From Ignavibacteria bacterium (GTDB lineage Bacteria > Bacteroidota > Ignavibacteria > UBA10030 > SZUA-254), in assembly GCA_016178625.1 (NCBI GenBank), contig JACOSX010000061.1:1-34330 (forward strand): a stretch of 34,330 nucleotides of DNA, in the 5' to 3' direction. Positions 21,578 through 32,206 of the stretch are shown one piece after another; the first letter of the stretch is position 1, and every line of letters starts with the position of its first letter. The position numbers were made by a program, and so were the translations under genes. The notes beneath the pieces are model-generated. The model was not told the DNA's origin, searched no databases, and saw nothing but the letters and a program-made list of their open reading frames with translations.

Positions 21578-21672
21578 TTGCGAGTCCCGATTTATCGGGA
21601 CGAAGCAATCTGACATGGCGTGAAAAATTTCGTTGGTTGGTCGGATTGCTTCGAACGACTCCGTTGAATGAC
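21578..21672. repeat. Degenerate GCGAG/CGAAGCAATCTGA palindromic repeat
   Basis: TTGCGAG and CGAAGCAATCTGA (21578-21614) flank a perfect palindrome GTCCCGAT-TT-ATCGGGAC, and CGGATTGCTTCG...AATGAC closes it by 21672. The same outer words occur in the element at 32080-32166. The rest of the gap 21442-21809 shows no gene. Confidence 0.65.
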
Positions 21673-21809: not shown

Positions 21810-21838
21810 TTGACAGGTTAGTAAATATTTAGTATGTT
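21810..21838 (+). promoter_or_regulatory. Near-consensus sigma70 promoter
   Basis: TTGACA (21810-21815), a 17-base AT-rich spacer, and TATGTT (21833-21838). Transcription would begin near 21845, leaving a leader of about 145 bases before the ATG at 21989. It is the best promoter in the window and drives the exported-protein/patatin gene run. Confidence 0.75.
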
Positions 21839-21988
21839 GCTGCTGTTTCCTTTGGGGGTTTGATTCACGTCTTCGTTTGGCAGATGGAATCCGGGGAGTA
21901 CTTCATCATCGCCCAACATTCTATTCAATAACTGATCGCTGCCAGACATCCTGATGCACACGTACATTCTATCTGGAGGAGCACAGTC

Positions 21989-23242
21989 ATGCGTAGATTT
22001 CTTGCTTATCTCATGTCGATCTCATCGTTGGTAAGCGCGCTTACTGCACAAACGGTCAGCCCACTTTATCAAGTGATGTCATCGAACTCGTCGATCAGGA
22101 GACCAGCAGAGTTTCGGGATATGCAGGACTACATCGAACAAAACTTCGGCGATGTGAAACCGGGTTTGCGCCTCGACTATTTCTACGATAAGTTATCGGC
22201 AGCTCGTACTATGCTGATGGCTAAGATTCAGACTCCACAAGTTCGCGCTAAAAACGACACGCTGATTTTTACGGTGGACAGGTTTTCATTCAGCGTGCCA
22301 GCAAGTACAATCCGAAAAGTCAGCAAGATCCTCGATCATACCGAAGAACAATTGGCTGATGCCCTGAAGAAAAGCATCGATACACTGTTCCTAACATTAT
22401 CCTTTTCCCCTCAAGAACAGCGTGCCGTTATCACTTCATTACTTACGATGCTAAGACAGACTGGCGTGGAAGGCGACGTCATACTCGGTAATTCCACTCA
22501 GGATCTTTCGAAAAGCATCTCTTCGATCTTACTGATACGAGCGAGAGCTGAGATGGAAAGTATTTTTCCGGAACGACCTTTATACAAAAATTATACAAAC
22601 ATCGATACGCTTCGTGATGATCTCCAGCTCGTTTTCGATAAGATCACCGGAGAGGTGCGAGATAGAATCACACAGGTCTTAGACAAAGCTGAACACGAAC
22701 TTGCAAAAACCGTTCTCGATGCATCAAATAAGTTATTGCAAGCGAACATCGGTTTGGGTGTGACGGAAGGAACGGGCGCCTTTAACGGTGGTATGCTGTA
22801 TACATTCAAGTTGTCCGCGTGGCTCAAAGGGGGATTATACATCAATGGACAATTCCACAATAGCGACACAACAGGATCTGCAACTGACACGCTCAAGCCG
22901 AGTGAATCCCTCGTAGGACTCCAGATCAGAGGAGTATTTGACCGGGCTCAGATCGATCTATTGGGCTCGAAGCTAATCGGCAATCACATGAACTCGGCAT
23001 GGGAATTCGGTCTTGGCGCATCCGCGCGTACAAACAATGACATCATCATCGGTCTGGCGATCTTTAGTGTGTTTCCTGAAGTGCTACAACTCAATAATGA
23101 AAACAGCACCTATACTCTCGGAGCGACTCTCAGGGGAACCGCGGCTGATTCTCCATCCCTGTTGTTCGGCGCGGTAATGCAGAAGGACAAGAAAACGGTG
23201 CCAGTGTTCCAGATCAGTTTCCCCATCCTTCCAAGCCGATAG
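21989..23242 (+). CDS. Exported protein with beta-rich C-terminus, unknown
   Basis: A 417-residue protein of no recognised family. A Sec signal peptide (MRRFLAYLMSISSLVSALTA, cleavage probably after TAQ) sends it to the periplasm or outer membrane. Residues about 60-250 are predicted helical, with amphipathic stretches such as ILDHTEEQLADALKKSIDTL. From about 255 the sequence alternates polar and hydrophobic residues with glycine turns (GGMLYTFKLSAWLKGGLYI, WEFGLGASAR, TYTLGATLRG), like strands of an outer-membrane barrel. GGAGGA lies eight bases before the ATG. It leads a tightly spaced run with the next two genes under a strong promoter. Confidence 0.75.
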   Translation: MRRFLAYLMSISSLVSALTAQTVSPLYQVMSSNSSIRRPAEFRDMQDYIEQNFGDVKPGLRLDYFYDKLSAARTMLMAKIQTPQVRAKNDTLIFTVDRFSFSVPASTIRKVSKILDHTEEQLADALKKSIDTLFLTLSFSPQEQRAVITSLLTMLRQTGVEGDVILGNSTQDLSKSISSILLIRARAEMESIFPERPLYKNYTNIDTLRDDLQLVFDKITGEVRDRITQVLDKAEHELAKTVLDASNKLLQANIGLGVTEGTGAFNGGMLYTFKLSAWLKGGLYINGQFHNSDTTGSATDTLKPSESLVGLQIRGVFDRAQIDLLGSKLIGNHMNSAWEFGLGASARTNNDIIIGLAIFSVFPEVLQLNNENSTYTLGATLRGTAADSPSLLFGAVMQKDKKTVPVFQISFPILPSR

Positions 23243-23255
23243 GAGGAGCAAAACA

Positions 23256-24545
23256 ATGAATAGAATCTTCTTACTCTTCACTGCGGCATTTCTGTTCACG
23301 CCCTCTCTTCGTGCAGGTGATGACAAAGTCAACGTCCTCGGCTATTATGCAGTGAACAATTCTCTCGATGGTCAGCTCATGGTCGACATGGTGAACGTGC
23401 TCAGGTTCTATCCCGTCTTTGCAATGAGAGATAGTACCAACTCTGTCTTTGTCACGATTTACTACGGCGGGAATATTTTCTCGCGTCCTGCCCGACAAAT
23501 GGACGGCGGAAGATACTGGCAAGTGCTGCTGCCGATTTTCAGATTGGGAGAGGCGATACAGAGAATTGAAGTGGATGTCCGTTTCGGTTTAAGAAAATCT
23601 ATTATAGAAAGTTATCAGAAAAAGCTTGACATCATCGCATTCGAAATTCGGAATGAACAAGATAAAGAGAGGCAAAAGTTTAAAGGCACTAAAAAGGAGT
23701 TTGGCGATCTCATAAAGAGCAATAACAAAGAATTCAACAAGTTAGGACTAACTTCTGCTCAGGCAGATCAACTGAGGAAACACCTTGAAGAAGATGTCGA
23801 CACATACGAGACGTTGCGAGATTCTCTTATCACGGGCGAGGCGGATCGGGAAATCGCTGATTCACTCATTTCCATTAGGAGTCAAAGTTTGAAACAATAT
23901 TTAAGCAATTATGAAATTGATGTAAAACAAAAAATAATGTCATTAGAATTGCAACGAAATCAGGTTCTTGACTCTGTACGCACAAAACTTGCAAGGCTCA
24001 TCGAGATTGACTTAACAGATACAAACTACTCTGGACCGAGTGTAAGAAGATCAGACCTTATCATCAGTGATGATTTGAACTCTGCACGCATCCTCTACCG
24101 CAACTACAAGAAAGAACTCCGTTACATGCCCGCCCTTGATCCTGCCGAACGGATGGGTGTCTTCCGTGTTCGCTATGTCCCCTTCCCTGTCGTTGGAACT
24201 CCCGACAATGCGAAGACGACGCTCAGGGGACCAACGGGTGACAACGCTCTCACTGTCTTTGAAGTCGGTCTGGCATTCGGAGATGCAATTGTGCCAGGGG
24301 ATGAATTTGTTATGCCCGAGTTCTCGTTCCGCCGACTGGGATTTGCGTTTGCAATTACTGAAAAATTGTTCAACAGTGATGCTCAAATCGTCGCCCTGGC
24401 GCTCACTTACGATTTCAATTCCTACGGAAGCATCGGCGTCGGGGCAAATCTCGCACAGCACCAGGTGCACGAGTACTTTAGTTTCGGCATCAACAAGAAA
24501 GCCTTCGAGGTCGCGCTGGCGGGGCTGACAGGGCTATTCAAATAA
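23256..24545 (+). CDS. Exported protein with coiled-coil middle, unknown
   Basis: A 429-residue protein of no recognised family, with a signal peptide (MNRIFLLFTAAFLFTPSLRA, cleavage near AG). The middle (about 105-235) is a long charged helix region rich in Lys/Glu and likely coiled coil (IRNEQDKERQKFKGTKKEF, DQLRKHLEEDVDTYETLRD). The last 120 residues are beta-rich with repeated aromatic-glycine endings (ALTYDFNSYGSIGVGANL). It starts 13 bases after the previous stop behind AGGAGG, so the two exported proteins are made from one message and may interact. Confidence 0.75.
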   Translation: MNRIFLLFTAAFLFTPSLRAGDDKVNVLGYYAVNNSLDGQLMVDMVNVLRFYPVFAMRDSTNSVFVTIYYGGNIFSRPARQMDGGRYWQVLLPIFRLGEAIQRIEVDVRFGLRKSIIESYQKKLDIIAFEIRNEQDKERQKFKGTKKEFGDLIKSNNKEFNKLGLTSAQADQLRKHLEEDVDTYETLRDSLITGEADREIADSLISIRSQSLKQYLSNYEIDVKQKIMSLELQRNQVLDSVRTKLARLIEIDLTDTNYSGPSVRRSDLIISDDLNSARILYRNYKKELRYMPALDPAERMGVFRVRYVPFPVVGTPDNAKTTLRGPTGDNALTVFEVGLAFGDAIVPGDEFVMPEFSFRRLGFAFAITEKLFNSDAQIVALALTYDFNSYGSIGVGANLAQHQVHEYFSFGINKKAFEVALAGLTGLFK

Positions 24546-24591
24546 ACGATGCGTCAGGATAAGACACCTTTACCACGAAGGAATGAGTTTT

Positions 24592-26475
24592 ATGAGTGAC
24601 GACAACAAAGCAACGAGAACAATCGATCAGATACTCAAAGACGAACTCGAAGTCATCAAAGCCAAGCGTGCCAACACAAATCCCGACGACGGCGCGGACG
24701 ATCCTCTGAAGAATCTCTTCGGCATTGCACTCTCGGGGGGTGGCATCCGCTCTGCCACAATCAATCTCGGTATCCTCGAGATCTTCAATACGTTCTGCAT
24801 CCTCCAGAAGGCAGATTACCTCTCGACCGTTTCGGGAGGCGGATACTGCGGCGGATATTTCCAGGCAAAGTTCCACGGCAACCGATCCTACCGAACCATC
24901 TTCACGAATAACGATATTCACAAGCTCAGAGAGTATGGAGACTATCTGATTCCTCAAACGGGCATCAAGAAGTTCTTCAACATGCTTCGCCTCGCCGGCG
25001 GATTTCTTGCAAGCTTCCTCATGAACCTGGTGTGGCTTGCACTCTTCTTCGGGACGCAGTTTTTTCTCGGCAAGGTTATCAGCGAGGTTTGCTGCATTGA
25101 GTTTGGTTGGCGATTCCTCGTATACTGGCTGCCCTTTGTTGCTGTAGCCGTATTGGCGTATCATTACTTTTTCCATTATCTCCGACACGTGAAGTTGTGG
25201 TCGTCCAACCTCCTTAACTATGCCGAAGGAGTGTTGCTTTTCTTGCTCATCATTGCCTACGCCTTGTTCTGGTTTAACTCGACTCACATCTATTTCTCTT
25301 CGTCCATCATCGGCCTCCTCATCGTGGCAGGACTTTTTCTCGTGACCGGTTTCTTTGCAAATCCCAACATTCTCACATTTCATCGCTTTTACAGAGACCG
25401 TCTTGCAACCGCGTACTTAAAGCCATCCGGCAAGACATACAATCGGATCAAGGTCGCTGAGCTGTATCCGACTAACAATAAACCACAAGGGCAGTACCCA
25501 CCCTACCCCCTCATCAACACCTGCCTGAATTTATCGGGCAAAGTAAAGGACGGCTATCGCGGCTCGAAAGCAAGCGATTACTTTCTCCTCTCGCCGCTCT
25601 ACTGTGGTTCGAAGCTCACCGGGTATATCAGCACGGCGAGCAGATTCTATAAGCGGATGACGCTCTCGACCGCAGTTGCTGTCTCAGGAGCTGCCGTCAA
25701 TCCGGAAATGGGAAGGCGCTCCAACGGTGTTCTTGCCTTTTTCATGACGCTGCTGAATTTGCAGCTCGGCTATTGGACTCACAATCCATCGATCAAATCC
25801 TCCTTCCCACTCACGTGGTGGCCCTATTATGAGATTCTGGAGTTGTTCAACAGAACAAACTCAGAAAAGGCACGAGTGAACATCTCCGATGGCGGACATA
25901 TCGAGAACCTCGCCATCTACGAGTTACTGAGGCGGAAGTGCAAGCTCATCATCGCCATCGATGCGGGTGAAGATCCGGACTTTGAATTTTCCGATCTCAC
26001 AGAACTCATCATCAGAGCGGAGAACGAGCTTGGCGTGCGGATCAAGTTTCGGGCAGGACAAGAACCCGAGTACCGCATCAAGCCCGCGACGTCCAACGGG
26101 TTTTCGAAATCGCATTTCGCTCTTGCAGACATCAGTGAACTGCCGGGAAATCCACAAGGAGAATACCGTGGCATCCTCGTATACATCAAATCGTCAATGA
26201 TGGAGCCGACAAGCTGGAAAAATATCGAGAAGGGGAAGCCTGAGTACGCGAGCTTCATGTACAAAACGTATCATCCGAGTTTTCCTCACGAGAGCACTGC
26301 AGACCAATTCTTCGATCACGACCAGTGGGAGGCGTACTACCAGCTCGGGCGATATATGGCTGGAGAGTTGCTCGGCGTAGAAATGAGAGACGACGCCGAA
26401 GTTACGCGGAAAGCGAATGACGTGTGCAAAAAAACTATCACTGAGCTTTCCGATTTTCTGAGCGGAAAAACGTAA
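24592..26475 (+). CDS. Patatin-like phospholipase with internal membrane domain
   Basis: A 627-residue acyl hydrolase predicted to cleave membrane lipids with a Ser-Asp dyad. The oxyanion hole GGGIRS is at 49-54, the nucleophile in TVSGGGY (Ser81), and the dyad Asp in SDGGHIENLA (Asp433). Between them, at about 130-260, are four hydrophobic segments (including FLMNLVWLALFFGTQFFLG and SIIGLLIVAGLFLVTGFF), so the catalytic domain is split by a membrane insertion. I chose ATG 24592 because AAGGA lies nine bases before it; an ATG at 24583 directly abuts that sequence. It starts 46 bases after the exported-protein gene and is probably in the same operon. Confidence 0.85.
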   Translation: MSDDNKATRTIDQILKDELEVIKAKRANTNPDDGADDPLKNLFGIALSGGGIRSATINLGILEIFNTFCILQKADYLSTVSGGGYCGGYFQAKFHGNRSYRTIFTNNDIHKLREYGDYLIPQTGIKKFFNMLRLAGGFLASFLMNLVWLALFFGTQFFLGKVISEVCCIEFGWRFLVYWLPFVAVAVLAYHYFFHYLRHVKLWSSNLLNYAEGVLLFLLIIAYALFWFNSTHIYFSSSIIGLLIVAGLFLVTGFFANPNILTFHRFYRDRLATAYLKPSGKTYNRIKVAELYPTNNKPQGQYPPYPLINTCLNLSGKVKDGYRGSKASDYFLLSPLYCGSKLTGYISTASRFYKRMTLSTAVAVSGAAVNPEMGRRSNGVLAFFMTLLNLQLGYWTHNPSIKSSFPLTWWPYYEILELFNRTNSEKARVNISDGGHIENLAIYELLRRKCKLIIAIDAGEDPDFEFSDLTELIIRAENELGVRIKFRAGQEPEYRIKPATSNGFSKSHFALADISELPGNPQGEYRGILVYIKSSMMEPTSWKNIEKGKPEYASFMYKTYHPSFPHESTADQFFDHDQWEAYYQLGRYMAGELLGVEMRDDAEVTRKANDVCKKTITELSDFLSGKT

Positions 26476-26598
26476 TCCTGGTCTTGACGGTTGGAACAGT
26501 TGCGATAGACATTGGCTTCCTTGAGCAATCCTCTAACAAGAACTGGAACCCTGTCCCTAACTCATAATAAAAAAACATCTCTTGAAAGGAGAAGACAT

Positions 26599-27816
26599 AT
26601 GCCAGCACGGAAGGCATCCAAAGCCACGGCGAAGAGTAGCAACAGAAAAGTCTTACGCTTTGCCCATCCATTCTTTACAACCGTGCCGCATAACAGACGA
26701 CGGAACATTCCCGGCGTCGGAAAGCGGATGACGGAATACGTCGGCACTAAGCTTGAAAAGATACCTGATCCCCAGCGCGAGCCGACAATGACGTTGGAGG
26801 AAATCATAGGAAAGCCTGGTGTTACAGCAATTAAAAAAGCGAAAGCAATCTCTTTTCATGCTGTAGGGGACACAGGGCACCCGAACGGAGAAATGGAGGA
26901 GCTCGTAGCCGATGCAATGTCGGGAGATTACAAGGCTGCCAAACCTGAAAAATCACCGGCTTTTTTTCTGCACATGGGAGATGTTAATTATTATAAGAAC
27001 AACGATGCAGGTTATCATGAACAATTTTATGTGCCGTACAAAAAGTATCCCGGAAAAATCATAGCGATTCCTGGAAATCATGACGGGGAGTTGTACAAGT
27101 TCGATGGAACGAGCAGTGGACAGAAAAACACCCTGGATGCCTTCCGGAAAAATTTCTGCCCACCCAAACCATCCATTCCTCCGGCAGCAGGTACGATTTA
27201 TCGTGAGATGGTAAGCCAACCTGGGGTATACTGGTTATTGAATGCACCGTTTGTCGACATTGTAGCACTTTATTCAAACGTTGCAGAAGGACCCGGATAC
27301 ATTGCCGGCAAAAATATCGGACAGAAGCAAAAAGGCTGGCTCATCAAAACACTCACTGCTATTCAAAAAGAACGGGATAAAGGCAACCGTAAGGCTTTGT
27401 TGATTGTCGTTCATCACCCGCCATTCAGCAATGGTGGTCACGCTTCCAGTACCGACATGCTCAAAGACATTGATGACGCGTGTAAGCAAAGCAGCATCAT
27501 GTCTGATGCAGTACTCGCAGCGCACGCTCACGATTACCAGCGCTATACCCGTTTTGTTTCTCCCGGTGGTAAGAAAATGGAGATTCCCTTTATCGTTGCC
27601 GGCTCCGGTGGACGTGGCTTGTCACCACATGTAGGTCAAGCGAACGGCAAGAAGGATGGCGACCATACATATGATAAATCGTTGCGTGGTTATGGTTATC
27701 TTACAGTCACTGTTACAGATCGCCTGCTGACGATTAGCTTCACCCAGGTAGATAAGGGTCTGAAAAAACCATTCGACAAGGTAGTGGTTGATTTGAAGAC
27801 AAATCTTCTGCGCTAA
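26599..27816 (+). CDS. Metallophosphoesterase, purple acid phosphatase-like
   Basis: A 405-residue calcineurin-like phosphoesterase. Dimetal motifs occur in order: HAVGDTGHPNG (DxG-type), FFLHMGDVNYY (GD), AIPGNHDGE (GNH), LLIVVHHPPFSNGG and AAHAHDYQRYTR (GHxH-like). Spacing and the YQRYTR ending resemble purple-acid-phosphatase relatives. The first 60 residues are basic and have no obvious signal peptide, which is odd for this group and suggests a cytosolic enzyme. The ATG at 26599 has AAAGGAG six bases upstream; a TTG-started extension to 26512 is rejected. It lies 123 bases after the patatin gene and may have its own promoter. Confidence 0.85.
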   Translation: MPARKASKATAKSSNRKVLRFAHPFFTTVPHNRRRNIPGVGKRMTEYVGTKLEKIPDPQREPTMTLEEIIGKPGVTAIKKAKAISFHAVGDTGHPNGEMEELVADAMSGDYKAAKPEKSPAFFLHMGDVNYYKNNDAGYHEQFYVPYKKYPGKIIAIPGNHDGELYKFDGTSSGQKNTLDAFRKNFCPPKPSIPPAAGTIYREMVSQPGVYWLLNAPFVDIVALYSNVAEGPGYIAGKNIGQKQKGWLIKTLTAIQKERDKGNRKALLIVVHHPPFSNGGHASSTDMLKDIDDACKQSSIMSDAVLAAHAHDYQRYTRFVSPGGKKMEIPFIVAGSGGRGLSPHVGQANGKKDGDHTYDKSLRGYGYLTVTVTDRLLTISFTQVDKGLKKPFDKVVVDLKTNLLR

Positions 27817-27849
27817 AATAATTTTAGAGAGCAACCTGGTCTCGATATT

Positions 27850-27900
27850 TGCAGCGGTAAGAAAGAAAAGACAATGGCTTTCTTGCAATCTCTCTTTTTT
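27850..27900 (+). terminator. Possible terminator after the metallophosphoesterase gene
   Basis: TTGCA...AAGAAAG pairs with CTTTCTTGCAA around a loop, followed by TCTCTCTTTTTT. It is 33 bases past the stop codon and fits an intrinsic terminator with a bulged stem. Confidence 0.45.
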
Positions 27901-28062
27901 GAGGCTGTCCAAAAAGAAGATCGTAGAGTCCATTTCGTAAATGGACTCTTTGGAAATGGAGCAGAACCGACAAAGATTCTGTCCGATTGCGAATCGGACT
28001 CTACATTTCCCGACTTTCTGGACAGCTTCATGTCCCGCTCCCGATATTATCGGGACGGGACA
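27900..28062. repeat. Nested palindromic element with GGCTGTCC ends
   Basis: TGAGGCTGTCCAAAAAG at 27900-27916 is inverted as CTTTCTGGACAGCTTCA ending at 28030. Inside are GTAGAGTCC/GGACTCTAC, the perfect 10-bp stem GAGTCCATTT/AAATGGACTC (27926-27948) and GTCCGATT/AATCGGAC (27981-27999). Next to it 28031-28062 is another palindrome around CCCGATATTATCGGG. The outer ends match the element at 32047-32206. Confidence 0.75.
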
Positions 28063-28271
28063 GTAGGGGTCGAGAGGAGTAGCACAGCCAATTCTTTGTG
28101 ATCAATGTGAAATACAATGGGTTTCTCAAGGATCGGCAACAACGCCTCGCTGATGACTTCGTGAGCCAATAACTGCAAAGAGAGCAATCTGGTCTTGACA
28201 TTTGAAATGGTTAGACGTACATTCTCGCAGCGCTCAGCACTTGAAAGAAATAAAAGCGCTCTACGAGTCCT

Positions 28272-28356
28272 TTCTACGAACCGATGGTTCGTAGAACCGT
28301 CGGTCGACTCGAAGAGTCGTTCTACGAATCTACGATTCGTAGGATCGTAGATAGAC
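28272..28356. repeat. Palindromic repeat cluster before the cassette array
   Basis: TTCTACGAACC/GGTTCGTAGAA is a perfect 11-bp stem (28272-28296). GACTC-GAA-GAGTC and CTACGAATC/GATTCGTAG (28322-28342) follow. The stretch 28313-28356 is an inverted copy of 20339-20374 with 8 extra bases. The gap 28063-28390 otherwise shows only a diverged copy of AGAGAGCAAYCTGGTCT (27828 and 28179). Confidence 0.75.
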
Positions 28357-28390
28357 AATATTGTATAATTAACGGTTAGCTGCAAGGCAA

Positions 28391-29044
28391 ATGAAATACA
28401 GACCAACACCTTTAAATATTACAAGTGCAGTAGCAATCGGCTTCTCAATATATGCTGCAATACATGATGCAATAACTCCTGGATCTGAAGGATTTGGTTT
28501 CCTCATGTTATTTTTCTTTTCACCATCTGGTATCATTGGACTAACTGTTGATTACTTTCTGCAAAAGATTTCGAAAAAATATGTTTGGACTTTCATTGTT
28601 GAAAGTTGTCTACTTGGTTTTCTTTTTCTTTATTACAGTTCGAAACAAGGGAAGAAGACCTTAATAATTCCAGACCATTTAGAACAACCTTACATTGTAA
28701 CAATTTATGGTGTGGATAGCGCCCCTGAACTTCCAAACGGGCTATTAAGTTGGAATCCTCAAATCAAAGTTCCTGAAAATGGAATCCTGTTGACTTCAAC
28801 AAGTATTGAAAATGATTTACCAGACACTAGATGGTTTACAACTTCTGGCATTGACCTTCAAAACCCAAACGATTCAACTGATATGTACGTTGGTCATGTA
28901 CGAACAGGTTCTGTTAAATGCTCAGAAAAAGAATTTAAATACCAAATTTGGAAATTAGTTGATAAGCGCTGGACAACTGGACCTTTATCAAGAGAGTTAG
29001 ACTCATTGGAATTAATGCTAACAGATTACTTATGTAAGAAATGA
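28391..29044 (+). CDS. Membrane protein of unknown function, cassette A
   Basis: A 217-residue protein with three hydrophobic N-terminal segments (about 10-25, 36-53 and 66-82). A soluble, probably external, beta-rich domain follows (PYIVTIYGVDS, IKVPENGILLTSTSI, DTRWFTTSGIDLQ). The soluble part vaguely recalls the DUF6843 type, which I cannot confirm. The ATG lies 16 bases after the cassette start GTTAGCTGC with AAGG just upstream, and the stop is 7 bases before the site that ends the cassette. The gene is visibly AT-rich compared with the housekeeping region, consistent with transfer. Confidence 0.65.
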   Translation: MKYRPTPLNITSAVAIGFSIYAAIHDAITPGSEGFGFLMLFFFSPSGIIGLTVDYFLQKISKKYVWTFIVESCLLGFLFLYYSSKQGKKTLIIPDHLEQPYIVTIYGVDSAPELPNGLLSWNPQIKVPENGILLTSTSIENDLPDTRWFTTSGIDLQNPNDSTDMYVGHVRTGSVKCSEKEFKYQIWKLVDKRWTTGPLSRELDSLELMLTDYLCKK

Positions 29045-29050
29045 AGCCCA

Positions 29051-29094
29051 GCAGCTAACATGGGCGGTGCCCTCGTTACGCAACGTTATACGCC
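29051..29094 (+). other. attC-like site between cassettes A and B
   Basis: GCAGCTAAC (29051-29059), a small GGGC-GGT-GCCC hairpin (29062-29071), then GTTATACGCC (29085-29094). The outer boxes share only AAC/GTT with each other, as expected for a hybrid site, while each matches the far end of its own cassette. Confidence 0.65.
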
Positions 29095-29121
29095 ACTGCA
29101 ACCGATGGAAAGGAGATTCCA

Positions 29122-29676
29122 ATGGGAGCCATATACAGTACAATATTTAGAATATCGCCCGAAGACAAACGTAATTTGTATGTCTTCGCATTTGGGATTA
29201 ATAAATTGGATGACGTGCATGATTGGCTCGAAGAGAAGTTCGTCAAAGTATCCACTGCCCTTGGCGTGGAAGGACTCTTCGTGATGGCAGAAGACAAGCC
29301 ACTTGATCCTGACCTATCAGAAGCTTATGGAAAAATCAATTCAATCCCTCTGGGCGGTCGAGGATTTCTTGTCAGCAACGTAAATCCATACAAGATTCAA
29401 GAAACTTCAAATGAACAGCGGCCAGAAGTTCTATTTATTCCGATCATAAAGCCTGACCGAGATGAATTGGCACGATTGGTTGACCAAATTGTGAATGCAG
29501 CTAAGAGCAACAACATTTCTCTGCTGCGACCTTTGAGCAAATCGCTCAACCAAGAATCGAATCAGAGCATCGCCAACCTCGTCATTTCGAATGCATCGTT
29601 TAAACCAAGTTTCGTCGGCTTTGGCTTCGATGTCGGAAACTTCACGAGAGAACTGATCAAAAGATTGAAACGGTAA
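29122..29676 (+). CDS. Soluble protein of unknown function, cassette B
   Basis: A 184-residue cytosolic protein with no membrane segment and no family I recognise. It begins MGAIYSTIFRISPEDKRN and contains a helical middle (DRDELARLVDQIVNAAKSNN) and a glycine/phenylalanine-rich end (SFVGFGFDVGNFTRELIKRL). A strong ribosome-binding site AAGGAG lies seven bases before the ATG, inside the cassette leader. It stops 10 bases before the next attC-like site, so it fills its cassette completely. Confidence 0.7.
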   Translation: MGAIYSTIFRISPEDKRNLYVFAFGINKLDDVHDWLEEKFVKVSTALGVEGLFVMAEDKPLDPDLSEAYGKINSIPLGGRGFLVSNVNPYKIQETSNEQRPEVLFIPIIKPDRDELARLVDQIVNAAKSNNISLLRPLSKSLNQESNQSIANLVISNASFKPSFVGFGFDVGNFTRELIKRLKR

Positions 29677-29686
29677 GTGACTCGTT

Positions 29687-29740
29687 CGGTTGCAGCGGCG
29701 TATAACAGCGCGAGCTTTGCCCTTCTATGCGTTAGGCAAC
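29687..29740 (+). other. attC-like site between cassettes B and C
   Basis: CGGTTGCAGCGGCGTATAAC (29687-29706), inner GAGCTTTGCCC, then GTTAGGCAAC (29731-29740). The first box is complementary at 19 of 20 bases to the start of cassette B at 29085-29104. The 54-base length is within the attC range. Confidence 0.7.
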
Positions 29741-29797
29741 AGTAAGAAAATTACACTATAGCTACAAAACTGACACTCAATGATTTGAGGTCCCCTT

Positions 29798-30115
29798 ATG
29801 GAAAGCTACACACTTATTGGATGGCACATCCAAGATACCTATGTATATTTTTCGTTAACACTATTCGGATCAATTGTAATGTATATATTTTCTCTTTTCA
29901 AGGGGTTTCAGGGGGCAGTGGCATTTTTGAATAAAGTTCTTCCCGGACATTCAAAAGTCTTCTATGATCGTTTGGATTTTCTTATTGTAGTTATGACTGG
30001 GGCAATAGTAGGGACAATTTTCTTTTCACCCTCCAACAATCTGCAGGCTCTTGCAGCAGGATTTGGTTGGGTAGGAGCAATTAATATCCTTCTGAATCAA
30101 AAAGAGGGTGGATGA
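29798..30115 (+). CDS. Small membrane protein, cassette C (first gene)
   Basis: A 105-residue protein with three hydrophobic stretches (about 15-33, 61-77, 84-98). Between the first two is a basic loop with LNKVLPGHSKVFYDRLD. The family is not recognised. GAGG lies about seven bases before the ATG. Its stop overlaps the start of the next gene in an ATGA arrangement, so the pair is translationally coupled and the products probably work together in the membrane. A toxin-immunity or effector role is possible but unsupported. Confidence 0.65.
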   Translation: MESYTLIGWHIQDTYVYFSLTLFGSIVMYIFSLFKGFQGAVAFLNKVLPGHSKVFYDRLDFLIVVMTGAIVGTIFFSPSNNLQALAAGFGWVGAINILLNQKEGG

Positions 30116-30357
30116 ACATGGACAAGAACATTTGGCTACTAACTTCTTTGGTAATCGGTCTCATCGGTTCAGCAATTGGTACTTTTTGGCTTTTTTTCAA
30201 ACCGGAAAAATATAAAGCTATCTTCTCGTCTACTTTGAAAAAGGCTTTCCCTTTTATCCTCGTTATGGGCGTAATACTTCTCTTCCTTTTGTTTGGGAAA
30301 TATATCATTGCAATAATAATTTTCGTAGTTGTTTTTCTAATTGATTTATTTACATGA
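30112..30357 (+). CDS. Small membrane protein, cassette C (second gene)
   Basis: An 81-residue, strongly hydrophobic protein with three predicted membrane helices (about 9-27, 45-58, 61-79) and lysine-rich loops (FKPEKYK, TLKKAF). It overlaps the preceding gene by four bases. An alternative ATG at 30118 has better spacing from GAGGG. No family is recognised. The stop is 44 bases before the box that closes the cassette. Two-gene cassettes are less common than single-gene ones. Confidence 0.6.
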   Translation: MNMDKNIWLLTSLVIGLIGSAIGTFWLFFKPEKYKAIFSSTLKKAFPFILVMGVILLFLLFGKYIIAIIIFVVVFLIDLFT

Positions 30358-30400
30358 TGGCAGTGCCCTTTCAACGAAAAAATTATTAATATCTCGTGCC

Positions 30401-30427
30401 GTTGCCTGACAAGCGGCAATGCTGGGG
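30401..30427 (+). other. Collapsed attC-like site between cassettes C and D
   Basis: GTTGCCTGAC (30401-30410) matches the end expected for cassette C. It runs directly into AGCGGCAATGCTGG (30412-30425), which is 12/14 complementary to the end of cassette D (CCAGCACTGCAGCT at 31123-31136). The normal interior of the site is missing, so it was probably lost by deletion. Confidence 0.5.
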
Positions 30428-30431
30428 AAGA

Positions 30432-31118
30432 ATGAAAACTGACTCTCGCATACAGAAATGGATCACGTGGTTAGGGGTCATTGAGAGTGAGATGTATGAA
30501 CTCTTGATGCTTCGCTATGTTTTTTGGGAGGTGCAGAAAATCATAAAGGCTAATCCCAAAATACAGATGGACGGATATTTTTATGAGTGGCTTGGTCTAT
30601 CGTACTCGAAGACTGCCTGTATTGGCGTACGACGTCAGCTCGACCCTGATCCCAGAGGCATAACTCTGGCTCGGCTCCTTGCTGAGATTCAGCAGTCGTC
30701 GATCGCATTGACATATAGTCGTTTTGAGAGTATGTACACCGATGGACAGCCTAAGCACACTCAACACCAAAAAATGCTCTACGATCTACAGAAGCAACAA
30801 GCCCAAAGAGACTTCAAACAATTCGGCAGCAGAAGAAAGGGCCATGTCGATGCTTCTTTTGTTTGCAACGATCTAATTCGGCTCAACATGGCGTGCGATT
30901 CAATTTTAAGATATGCACACAAGCGCATTGCTCATCGTGATAAGAAGAAGTTCACTCAGTTTCCAACGTTTAATGACCTTGATAAGGCAATCGATCTCTT
31001 GTTCACTGTGTACAAAAAATACGTTCATTTGCTACGTGGAGTTCAGTATGATATTACAATTGCGCCACAATGGGACTGGAAAGAAGTTTTTACAGTACCA
31101 TGGATTAACGAACCGTGA
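30432..31118 (+). CDS. AbiU2-like HEPN-type protein (candidate defence), cassette D
   Basis: A 228-residue all-helical protein. The C-terminal part RYAHKRIAHRDKKKFTQF, then PTFNDLDKAIDLLFTVYKK, strongly recalls the AbiU2/HEPN-type signature (R..RIAHxD followed by PTxxDLdkAid). HEPN proteins are often RNases of toxin-antitoxin and abortive-infection systems, with an Rx4-6H active site. Here KRIAH gives R-x2-H and R-Y-A-H-K-R-I-A-H gives R-x7-H, so the exact catalytic spacing is not met and activity is uncertain. The ATG at 30432 is used because a GTG at 30396 would read through the attC remnant. The stop is five bases before the closing box. Confidence 0.5.
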   Translation: MKTDSRIQKWITWLGVIESEMYELLMLRYVFWEVQKIIKANPKIQMDGYFYEWLGLSYSKTACIGVRRQLDPDPRGITLARLLAEIQQSSIALTYSRFESMYTDGQPKHTQHQKMLYDLQKQQAQRDFKQFGSRRKGHVDASFVCNDLIRLNMACDSILRYAHKRIAHRDKKKFTQFPTFNDLDKAIDLLFTVYKKYVHLLRGVQYDITIAPQWDWKEVFTVPWINEP

Positions 31119-31122
31119 TTCA

Positions 31123-31139
31123 CCAGCACTGCAGCTAAC
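31123..31139 (+). other. Terminal attC-like box after cassette D
   Basis: CCAGCACTGCAGCTAAC is the AAC-ending box of cassette D. An interior-like AAAGGTCAAAGCCC follows, but no matching GTT box can be placed with confidence before 31216, so the array may end here or the site may be degraded. Confidence 0.45.
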
Positions 31140-31215
31140 ACTTTATAAAAGGTCAAAGCCCAGCGAACAGTGGACGGGATTTTACACAAAGCGTTCACCA
31201 AGAGACGGAGATACT

Positions 31216-31629
31216 ATGCAAAACATAGATATTGAGCTTGTGCTAAAAGTTCTCGTAGGAGTTGCGGGAATTATTGTTTCTTTATTCCAACTCCGAAACC
31301 TGAAGCCAATATCTCGGTCTGCGATCAAGACTGATCTGGAAATGCTGAAAATGCTCGATGAGTCCGATCCAAACCACGCTATGATCAAAGCACGCTTTGA
31401 TGAGACAATAAGGCGGGTCTATTCCATGGATCACTCGACAGGGACAAAAGTTCACAGCTGGAGGGATTTCATATTCGGAGTTACGTTTCTTTCCGTGTTC
31501 TCAGTGTGGACCATTCTCCTTCTTAAGAACGGCTTCACACCGTGGTCACTGCTTACAGGGTTCTTTGCGGTTGCCGGACTTGGAGGAATCATGAATGGTT
31601 TTGATCCGAAGAGAGCTAAACAGAAGTGA
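31216..31629 (+). CDS. Small membrane protein of unknown function
   Basis: A 137-residue protein with one N-terminal hydrophobic segment (VLKVLVGVAGIIVSLFQL, about 9-26), a charged middle (IKTDLEMLKMLDESDPNHAM), and two C-terminal helices (about 88-103 and 110-127). No family is recognised. The open frame extends upstream to 30913 but that part overlaps the AbiU2-like gene and has no starts of its own; the ATG at 31216 has CGGAG nine bases upstream. It could be the cargo of a further cassette, but its boundaries are not visible. Confidence 0.6.
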   Translation: MQNIDIELVLKVLVGVAGIIVSLFQLRNLKPISRSAIKTDLEMLKMLDESDPNHAMIKARFDETIRRVYSMDHSTGTKVHSWRDFIFGVTFLSVFSVWTILLLKNGFTPWSLLTGFFAVAGLGGIMNGFDPKRAKQK

Positions 31630-31662
31630 CTACAAATAGATGTTTTGTAAGGAACAATACCC

Positions 31663-32034
31663 ATGAAAGAAGATTACTACTTCGAACAACGTGAAGGCTA
31701 TATCTACATCAAGCTTACAGAACCGGAAACATTAGAAAGTTGTAAACGAGAAGCGTTGGCTACGAAAACCTTAGTTGATAGATACAAGTGCAAAAAGGTG
31801 TTGGCAGACAACCGAGAGAAGCCTTCCTTTATCGGCACATTCGAGGAATACGAGCTGGCAGAGTTTTATGCGAAACATAAACTTCAAATGCACATCTCCC
31901 ATGCTGCCATCGTGTTTGATCCGAAGGTCGTAGCTCAAATGAAGTTTTGGGAAGATGCTTCCTTCAACAGGGGTATCAACGTACGGGTGTTCTCGAGTCT
32001 CGAAGAAGCCGAACGATGGCTGAAAGGTAGTTAA
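31663..32034 (+). CDS. STAS/SpoIIAA-like domain protein
   Basis: A 123-residue soluble protein with the alternating beta-alpha pattern of the SpoIIAA-like/STAS fold. YIYIKLTEPETLESC is followed by helix REALATKTLVDRYKCKK, strand VLADNREKP, helix FEEYELAEFYAKHKL, strand HAAIVFDP, and ends with VRVFSSLEEAERWLKG, a typical closing of this group. Function is unknown; relatives may bind lipids or partner proteins. It starts 33 bases after the previous stop behind AAGGA and its stop is 12 bases before a MITE-like element. Confidence 0.65.
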   Translation: MKEDYYFEQREGYIYIKLTEPETLESCKREALATKTLVDRYKCKKVLADNREKPSFIGTFEEYELAEFYAKHKLQMHISHAAIVFDPKVVAQMKFWEDASFNRGINVRVFSSLEEAERWLKGS

Positions 32035-32045
32035 CGCAAGTGGGC

Positions 32046-32206
32046 TCCTTCTTTTCGAGGCTGTCCAAAAAGAAAAGTGGTCATTGCGAGGAGCGAAGCG
32101 ACGAAGCAATCTGATATTCTGATCAAAATCCGGATGATGAGATTGCTTCACTTCGTTCGCAATGACGGTAATAGTTACTTTTGGGACAGCCCCGAATGAA
32201 GAAGGA
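32046..32206. mobile_element. MITE-like element with palindromic core
   Basis: The ends TCCTTCTTTTCGAGGCTGTC (from 32046) and its near-complement ...GGACAGCCCCGAATGAAGAA (to 32206) form an imperfect terminal inverted repeat of about 28 bases. The inside (32080-32166) is the palindromic repeat GTCATTGCGAGGAGCGAAGC...GCAATGAC. It has no open frame of its own. The outer word GAGGCTGTCCAAAAAG is shared with the element at 27900. The rest of the gap to 32385 shows nothing. Confidence 0.6.

What the first reader, a model, noticed from the sequence alone, without database searches (positions are those of the whole stretch)
21810..27816. Candidate envelope-lipid module: two exported proteins, a membrane-split patatin and a phosphoesterase
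A near-consensus promoter drives two unrecognised exported proteins (gap 13 bases), then a patatin with its catalytic domain interrupted by four membrane helices, then a phosphatase. Patatin plus phosphatase can remodel or degrade phospholipids; two beta-rich exported partners could act at the outer membrane. I know of no described system with this set.
Basis: inference. Interest (0 to 1): 0.6.

Follow-up and report, generated by a model that had tools for sequence, protein, structure and literature searches.

The report
Outer-membrane gene pair beside lipid-cutting enzymes
Four neighbouring bacterial genes turn out to be a tightly conserved pair for an outer-membrane barrel protein and its exported partner, next to two separately travelling enzymes (a membrane-embedded phospholipase and a purple-acid-type phosphatase); related pairs elsewhere often sit beside other lipid-cutting enzymes, which hints at an undescribed envelope system with exchangeable lipases.

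Summary
A (21989-23242) and B (23256-24545) form an obligate adjacent pair: A lies directly upstream of B in every locus that shows that side (12 by sequence, one by position only), in Ignavibacteria/Bacteroidota, Latescibacterota and Calditrichaeota MAGs, never with C or D homologues. A is predicted to be a helical domain plus a 10-strand outer-membrane barrel. B is exported, with an Ig-like domain split by a coiled coil. C is a patatin/cPLA2-clan hydrolase with four membrane helices between Ser84 and Asp436, from a patchy family also found on rhizobial plasmids. D is purple-acid-phosphatase-like and travels separately. The lipid idea survives in another form: in five independent lineages, including this one, a different lipid hydrolase neighbours A-B (membrane patatin, ordinary patatin, GDPD plus alpha/beta hydrolase, DUF900, Tle1-like). 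In nine A-B genomes 3 of 28 such genes lie within 3 kb of A-B, against 0.06 expected (families chosen post hoc). Five loci show A-B with a convergent gene and no hydrolase, so the enzymes are optional partners. Function is inferred, not shown.

The parts
21810..21838 (+). promoter-like hexamers TTGACA-17-TATGTT upstream of A
   Evidence: 10/12 consensus match, but such matches are about twofold in excess in the whole region; not proof
21989..23242 (+). gene A: exported protein, helical N-terminal half and predicted 10-strand outer-membrane beta-barrel
   Evidence: N-terminal hydrophobic signal; AlphaFold2 mean pLDDT 69.8; Foldseek and VIA-align to outer-membrane barrels, best Z 16.1; no Pfam family
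23256..24545 (+). gene B: exported partner of A; Ig-like domain split by a coiled coil, conserved beta-rich C-terminal end
   Evidence: conserved at both ends in 13-sequence alignment; model; always follows A
24583..26475 (+). gene C: patatin/cPLA2-clan acyl hydrolase with four membrane helices between catalytic Ser84 and Asp436 (start probably 24592)
   Evidence: motifs invariant in eight homologues; hydropathy; homologues match PF01734
26599..27816 (+). gene D: purple-acid-phosphatase-like metallophosphoesterase
   Evidence: PF00149 3.6e-9; profile match to human purple acid phosphatase 1.1e-9; metal-binding motifs in alignment

Best explanation
The real unit is the A-B operon, which encodes a two-protein envelope complex. 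A sits in the outer membrane as a small barrel with a helical periplasmic part, and B is its exported partner with a coiled-coil arm. A-B occurs without neighbours of this kind in several genomes. In a subset of genomes it has been combined with exchangeable phospholipid-directed hydrolases encoded alongside. Here these are C, an inner-membrane acyl hydrolase whose two catalytic halves should face the cytoplasm, and D, a purple-acid-type phosphatase that could remove phosphate from head groups or glycerophosphates. The most likely working is that A-B is an export, anchoring or surface-sensing device and that the linked hydrolase damages or remodels membranes, in conflict with other cells or phage rather than in housekeeping. 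Shown: gene order, conservation of the pair, catalytic motifs, recurrence of hydrolases. Predicted: barrel, topology, export. Inferred: physical interaction, functional coupling, conflict role, direction of action.
For: A directly precedes B in all loci that show that side. A's barrel is supported by structure search. Five independent lineages have a co-directional lipid hydrolase beside A-B: C here; PF01734 patatin in G480; GDPD and a GxSxG membrane hydrolase in G531; DUF900 in L106/L107; Tle1-like PF09994 in G198, with papain and amidase genes further upstream. In nine A-B genomes 3 of 28 such genes lie within 3 kb of A-B, expected 0.06, Poisson P about 3e-5. A TIR-WD40 gene follows A-B in G447. 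C homologues lie beside lysozyme, DUF2235 or TIR genes, and D homologues beside patatin, PLD-like or PI-PLC-like genes.
Against: The hydrolase families were chosen after seeing the neighbours, so the probability is too favourable. Five loci (L100, L103, L104, L105, L108) have A-B followed by a convergent gene with no hydrolase in view. No interaction, activity or expression was tested. The D gene may be a separate transcript. Barrel and B models are of moderate confidence.
Confidence: 0.4

Rival explanations
1. Chance juxtaposition: A-B is a housekeeping outer-membrane pair of unrelated function, and C and D are mobile cargo that landed next to it in a variable region; there is no functional link.
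For: C and D have patchy distributions and travel separately. A-B stands without hydrolases in five loci. The region downstream is a low-GC segment of orphan genes, and the genes differ from locus to locus.
Against: Lipid hydrolases of unrelated folds recur beside A-B well above the background of nine genomes. B to C gap is only 37-46 bases, co-directional.
Confidence: 0.35
2. Lipid homeostasis: A, B, C and D remodel or recycle the cell's own envelope phospholipids.
For: Barrel in the outer membrane, phospholipase-type enzyme and phosphatase in one cluster; LpxR, PagL and FadL barrels appear among the fold matches.
Against: A housekeeping role predicts retention; C and A are absent from all 14 other same-family genomes searched. 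The enzymes are swapped for others in relatives, and C and D appear to lack signal peptides, so they are not obviously on the same side as A and B.
Confidence: 0.12
3. The hydrolases are payloads of a contractile injection system (T6SS or eCIS) encoded elsewhere in the genome, with A-B as an accessory.
For: Tle1-like enzymes are known T6SS payloads (family annotation). A C homologue in G188 lies upstream of a gene that reads like a contractile sheath protein (L039; sequence reading only).
Against: The phage/eCIS sheath family PF04984 is not found in the window's genome and only in 3 of 9 A-B genomes. C has membrane helices between its catalytic motifs, awkward for an injected protein. T6SS genes were not searched.
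Confidence: 0.08

Closest known systems
Patatin / cytosolic PLA2 clan phospholipases (PF01734, PF01735)
   Same: C has the SGGG oxyanion motif, the serine motif STVSGGG and the DGG aspartate motif, invariant in its homologues; seven of eight aligned members hit PF01734, best 1.9e-11
   Different: C itself falls below the Pfam cut-offs and carries four membrane helices between the motifs; that split is normal for its family
Purple acid phosphatases (PF00149 superfamily)
   Same: D's family aligns over its length with mammalian purple acid phosphatase, E about 1e-9, with GDxG, GDxxY, GNHD, HHPP and HxH motifs
   Different: No obvious signal peptide; basic N-terminal extension; GHxH reads AHAH in this protein
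Outer-membrane barrels with a helical periplasmic part, such as FapF and autotransporter translocators
   Same: A has a long helical part before a small barrel; structural match to FapF, OpcA, autotransporter barrels and a designed 10-strand barrel
   Different: No sequence relation; partner B has no counterpart in those systems; the transported substrate is unknown
T6SS lipase effector clusters (Tle families)
   Same: Swappable lipases of unrelated folds beside a conserved partner; a true PF09994 Tle1-like enzyme in G198
   Different: The conserved partners are A and B, not VgrG, PAAR or sheath proteins; no sheath-family (PF04984) gene in the window's genome

Membership tests
Patatin / cPLA2 clan (gene C) | glycine-rich oxyanion loop, nucleophile serine motif and DGG/DGA aspartate motif | tested here: met
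   G52-G54, S84 and D436-G438 invariant in eight homologues
Patatin / cPLA2 clan (gene C) | score above the curated Pfam cut-off | tested here: not met
   C alone: only PLA2_B at 0.15, below cut-off; seven of eight aligned family members match PF01734 at E up to 1, best 1.9e-11. The split domain explains the weak score
Patatin / cPLA2 clan (gene C) | phospholipid acyl hydrolase activity dependent on the Ser-Asp dyad | not testable with these tools
   needs an enzyme assay
Purple acid phosphatase (gene D) | metal-ligand motifs GDxG, GDxxY, GNHD/E, VxxH, GHxH | tested here: met
   all present in alignment A6; last motif AHAH in this protein, GHAH in most relatives; profile match to human enzyme 1.1e-9
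Outer-membrane beta-barrel (gene A) | signal peptide and closed antiparallel amphipathic barrel | tested here: met
   prediction only: ten strands 251-413, Z 16.1 to a designed membrane barrel; signal judged by eye, no signal-peptide program available
T6SS / eCIS effector cluster | contractile sheath gene in the same genome | tested here: inconclusive
   PF04984 not found in G000, found in 3 of 9 A-B genomes; T6SS sheath families not searched and the genome is a draft
Known anti-phage defence system | match of the four proteins to PADLOC models | tested here: not met
   no credible match; weak hits for B lie mostly in its coiled coil

The most novel reading that the evidence does not exclude
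A-B is an undescribed envelope device (outer-membrane barrel plus coiled-coil partner) that deploys or controls exchangeable lipid hydrolases and sometimes other lytic or TIR enzymes: a modular conflict system with a constant envelope core and variable effectors, of which this window carries the variant with a membrane-embedded phospholipase.
Probability: 0.2. Interest if true: 0.8.

Novelty: new variant of a known kind. Interest (0 to 1): 0.45.

Why it matters
If the link is real, two protein families that match nothing in Pfam would form the constant core of a lipase-linked envelope system in little-studied environmental bacteria, and the exchange of unrelated lipases around one core would show that lipid hydrolysis is the selected outcome. 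Even without it, A-B is a clean two-gene outer-membrane family with a strongly conserved B signature (ALDPAERLGIFR...RYIPFPIVG) that is ready for structural work.

Tried and rejected
Four-gene conservation: rejected. B as an Argonaute or methyltransferase (PADLOC hits): the hits lie mainly in the coiled coil and Pfam gives nothing, rejected. A or B related to solved proteins by sequence: no match better than E about 0.5. Fold match for B: only Ig-like/CBM-type domains and coiled coils at Z about 7, the level of chance arrangements; its C-terminal end was poorly modelled, so no statement on its fold. Phage origin of C: no relatives in phage records nor in IMG/VR (close relatives only). Plasmid relatives of B: none. 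Papers describing the A-B pair or this combination: none recognised in five full-text searches of the open-access library. A wider search for B in the order of G198 gave no further member in 390 genomes. Shared small neighbour genes between the window and other A-B loci: none noticed in an all-against-all comparison whose printout was cut.

Full report
What is there. The window is contig 18 of a 3.36 Mb draft genome. The nearest named relatives by B are Bacteroidetes/Ignavibacteria MAGs. Small corrections: C most likely begins at 24592 and D at 26599, judged by Shine-Dalgarno position. The promoter-like hexamers at 21810 are near consensus, but the region holds about twice as many such matches as shuffles give, so this is not proof.

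Gene order. B-directed searches (class-wide with the window's B; 84,980 species genomes with a B alignment; phylum-wide) gave 14 further loci. Where the side upstream of B is held, A lies directly before it, from an 11-base overlap to a gap of about 13 bases in most listed ORFs. L115 has an exported protein of similar architecture in that place, without detectable sequence similarity to A. None of the other 13 contains a homologue of C or D. Conversely, C homologues (L037-L043, L098, L116-L120) and D homologues (L091-L097) showed no A or B beside them in the searches made. A and C are missing from the 14 other same-family genomes. So A-B is one inherited unit, and C and D are independent units that meet it here.

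What the proteins are. A has no Pfam family. Its model shows helices and a small sheet up to residue 246, then ten antiparallel strands. The barrel matches a designed 10-strand outer-membrane barrel (Z 16.1, rmsd 2.1, 136 residues), OpcA (Z 15.8, rmsd 3.5, 155 residues), autotransporter barrels and FapF. Confidence is moderate (mean pLDDT 69.8), but the match stands above the level quoted for models without a clear match. B has an Ig-like domain split by a coiled coil, then a conserved beta-rich end that the model does not resolve; conservation is concentrated at both ends and the coiled coil varies. C is an acyl hydrolase of the patatin/cPLA2 clan with invariant SGGG, Ser84 and Asp436. The four helices between them are an even number, and the loops that would face the cytoplasm carry more Lys/Arg (3, 2 and 4 against 1 and 0), so both catalytic halves should lie in the cytoplasm. 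All eight relatives aligned carry membrane segments between the motifs, in varying number, so a membrane-split patatin is the family's normal state and not peculiar to this genome. D is purple-acid-phosphatase-like by motifs and by profile match to the human enzyme.

The hydrolase theme. The neighbours of A-B include different lipid-directed enzymes in different lineages: an ordinary patatin (G480); a GDPD downstream with an SNase and a membrane-spanning GxSxG hydrolase upstream (G531; the last read from sequence, no Pfam match); one or two DUF900 hydrolases (L106, L107); and a Tle1-like phospholipase directly before A, with papain-type protease and amidase genes further upstream (G198). One further locus has a TIR-WD40 protein after B (G447). 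To see whether this is more than chance, four families were counted in the nine available A-B genomes: 16 patatin, 9 GDPD, 2 Tle1-like and 1 DUF900 matches. Three lie within 3 kb of A-B, against 0.06 expected (Poisson P about 3e-5). The families were picked after the fact, so the probability is too favourable; on the other side, the window's own C and the L106/L107 loci are not in the count. Against a strict link, A-B is followed by a convergent gene with no hydrolase in view in L100, L103, L104, L105 and L108, and contig ends hide one side in several loci.

Relatives of the enzymes. C relatives on rhizobial plasmids sit beside lysozyme, DUF2235 and alpha/beta-hydrolase genes or among TIR genes, and in Hymenobacter beside a muramidase and a dipeptidase. 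D relatives lie beside a patatin, a PLD-like gene and a PI-PLC-like gene. These enzymes seem to belong to a pool of hydrolases that cluster with each other in many bacteria.

Most likely working. A-B is probably a two-protein outer-membrane/periplasmic complex. Its repeated pairing with unrelated lipases suggests that lipid hydrolysis is what gets coupled to it. The patchy distribution and the other neighbours (amidase, protease, SNase, TIR) point to conflict rather than housekeeping. Whether A-B exports the enzymes, protects against them or senses an attack at the surface cannot be decided from sequence. No PF04984 sheath gene was found in the window's genome, which makes an eCIS-type injector less likely; T6SS was not searched.

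Verdict. No description of the pair was recognised in the open-access papers searched, which does not exclude one elsewhere.

Noticed in passing
window 28000-31700: Low-GC segment (0.39-0.44 against 0.45-0.54 around it) of orphan small and membrane ORFs with an AbiU2-type HEPN gene at 30396-31118 (PF18734, 1.7e-9); looks like an inserted defence or mobile segment.
   Followed up: partly
window 27896-27918 and 32052-32074: A 23-base direct repeat (96%) brackets that low-GC segment; further looser copies at 135-152 and 32176-32193 suggest a dispersed intergenic repeat.
   Followed up: partly
window 21599-21652 and 32100-32149: A second pair of similar intergenic stretches (18 of 18 with one mismatch, then 18 at 78%) brackets A-D plus the low-GC segment.
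   Followed up: partly
window 26478-26501, 27826-27862, 28179-28215: Related short stretches (CTGGTCTTGAC...) lie on both sides of gene D and once more downstream, as if D were in a repeat-bounded cassette.
   Followed up: no
L087:4179-5567 (G531): A hydrolase with VHGMG and AHSLG motifs appears to be interrupted by hydrophobic segments too, a second membrane-split lipase type beside A-B.
   Followed up: no
L084:7158-9325 (G480): The A-B pair next to the patatin has a truncated A and an in-frame TAG in B: decayed genes or assembly errors.
   Followed up: no
L117:538-9775 (Mesorhizobium plasmid): The C homologue lies among four TIR-domain genes.
   Followed up: no
L039:5523-14287 (G188): A C homologue preceded by an overlapping exported 686-aa gene and followed by a gene that reads like a contractile sheath protein (sequence reading only).
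   Followed up: no
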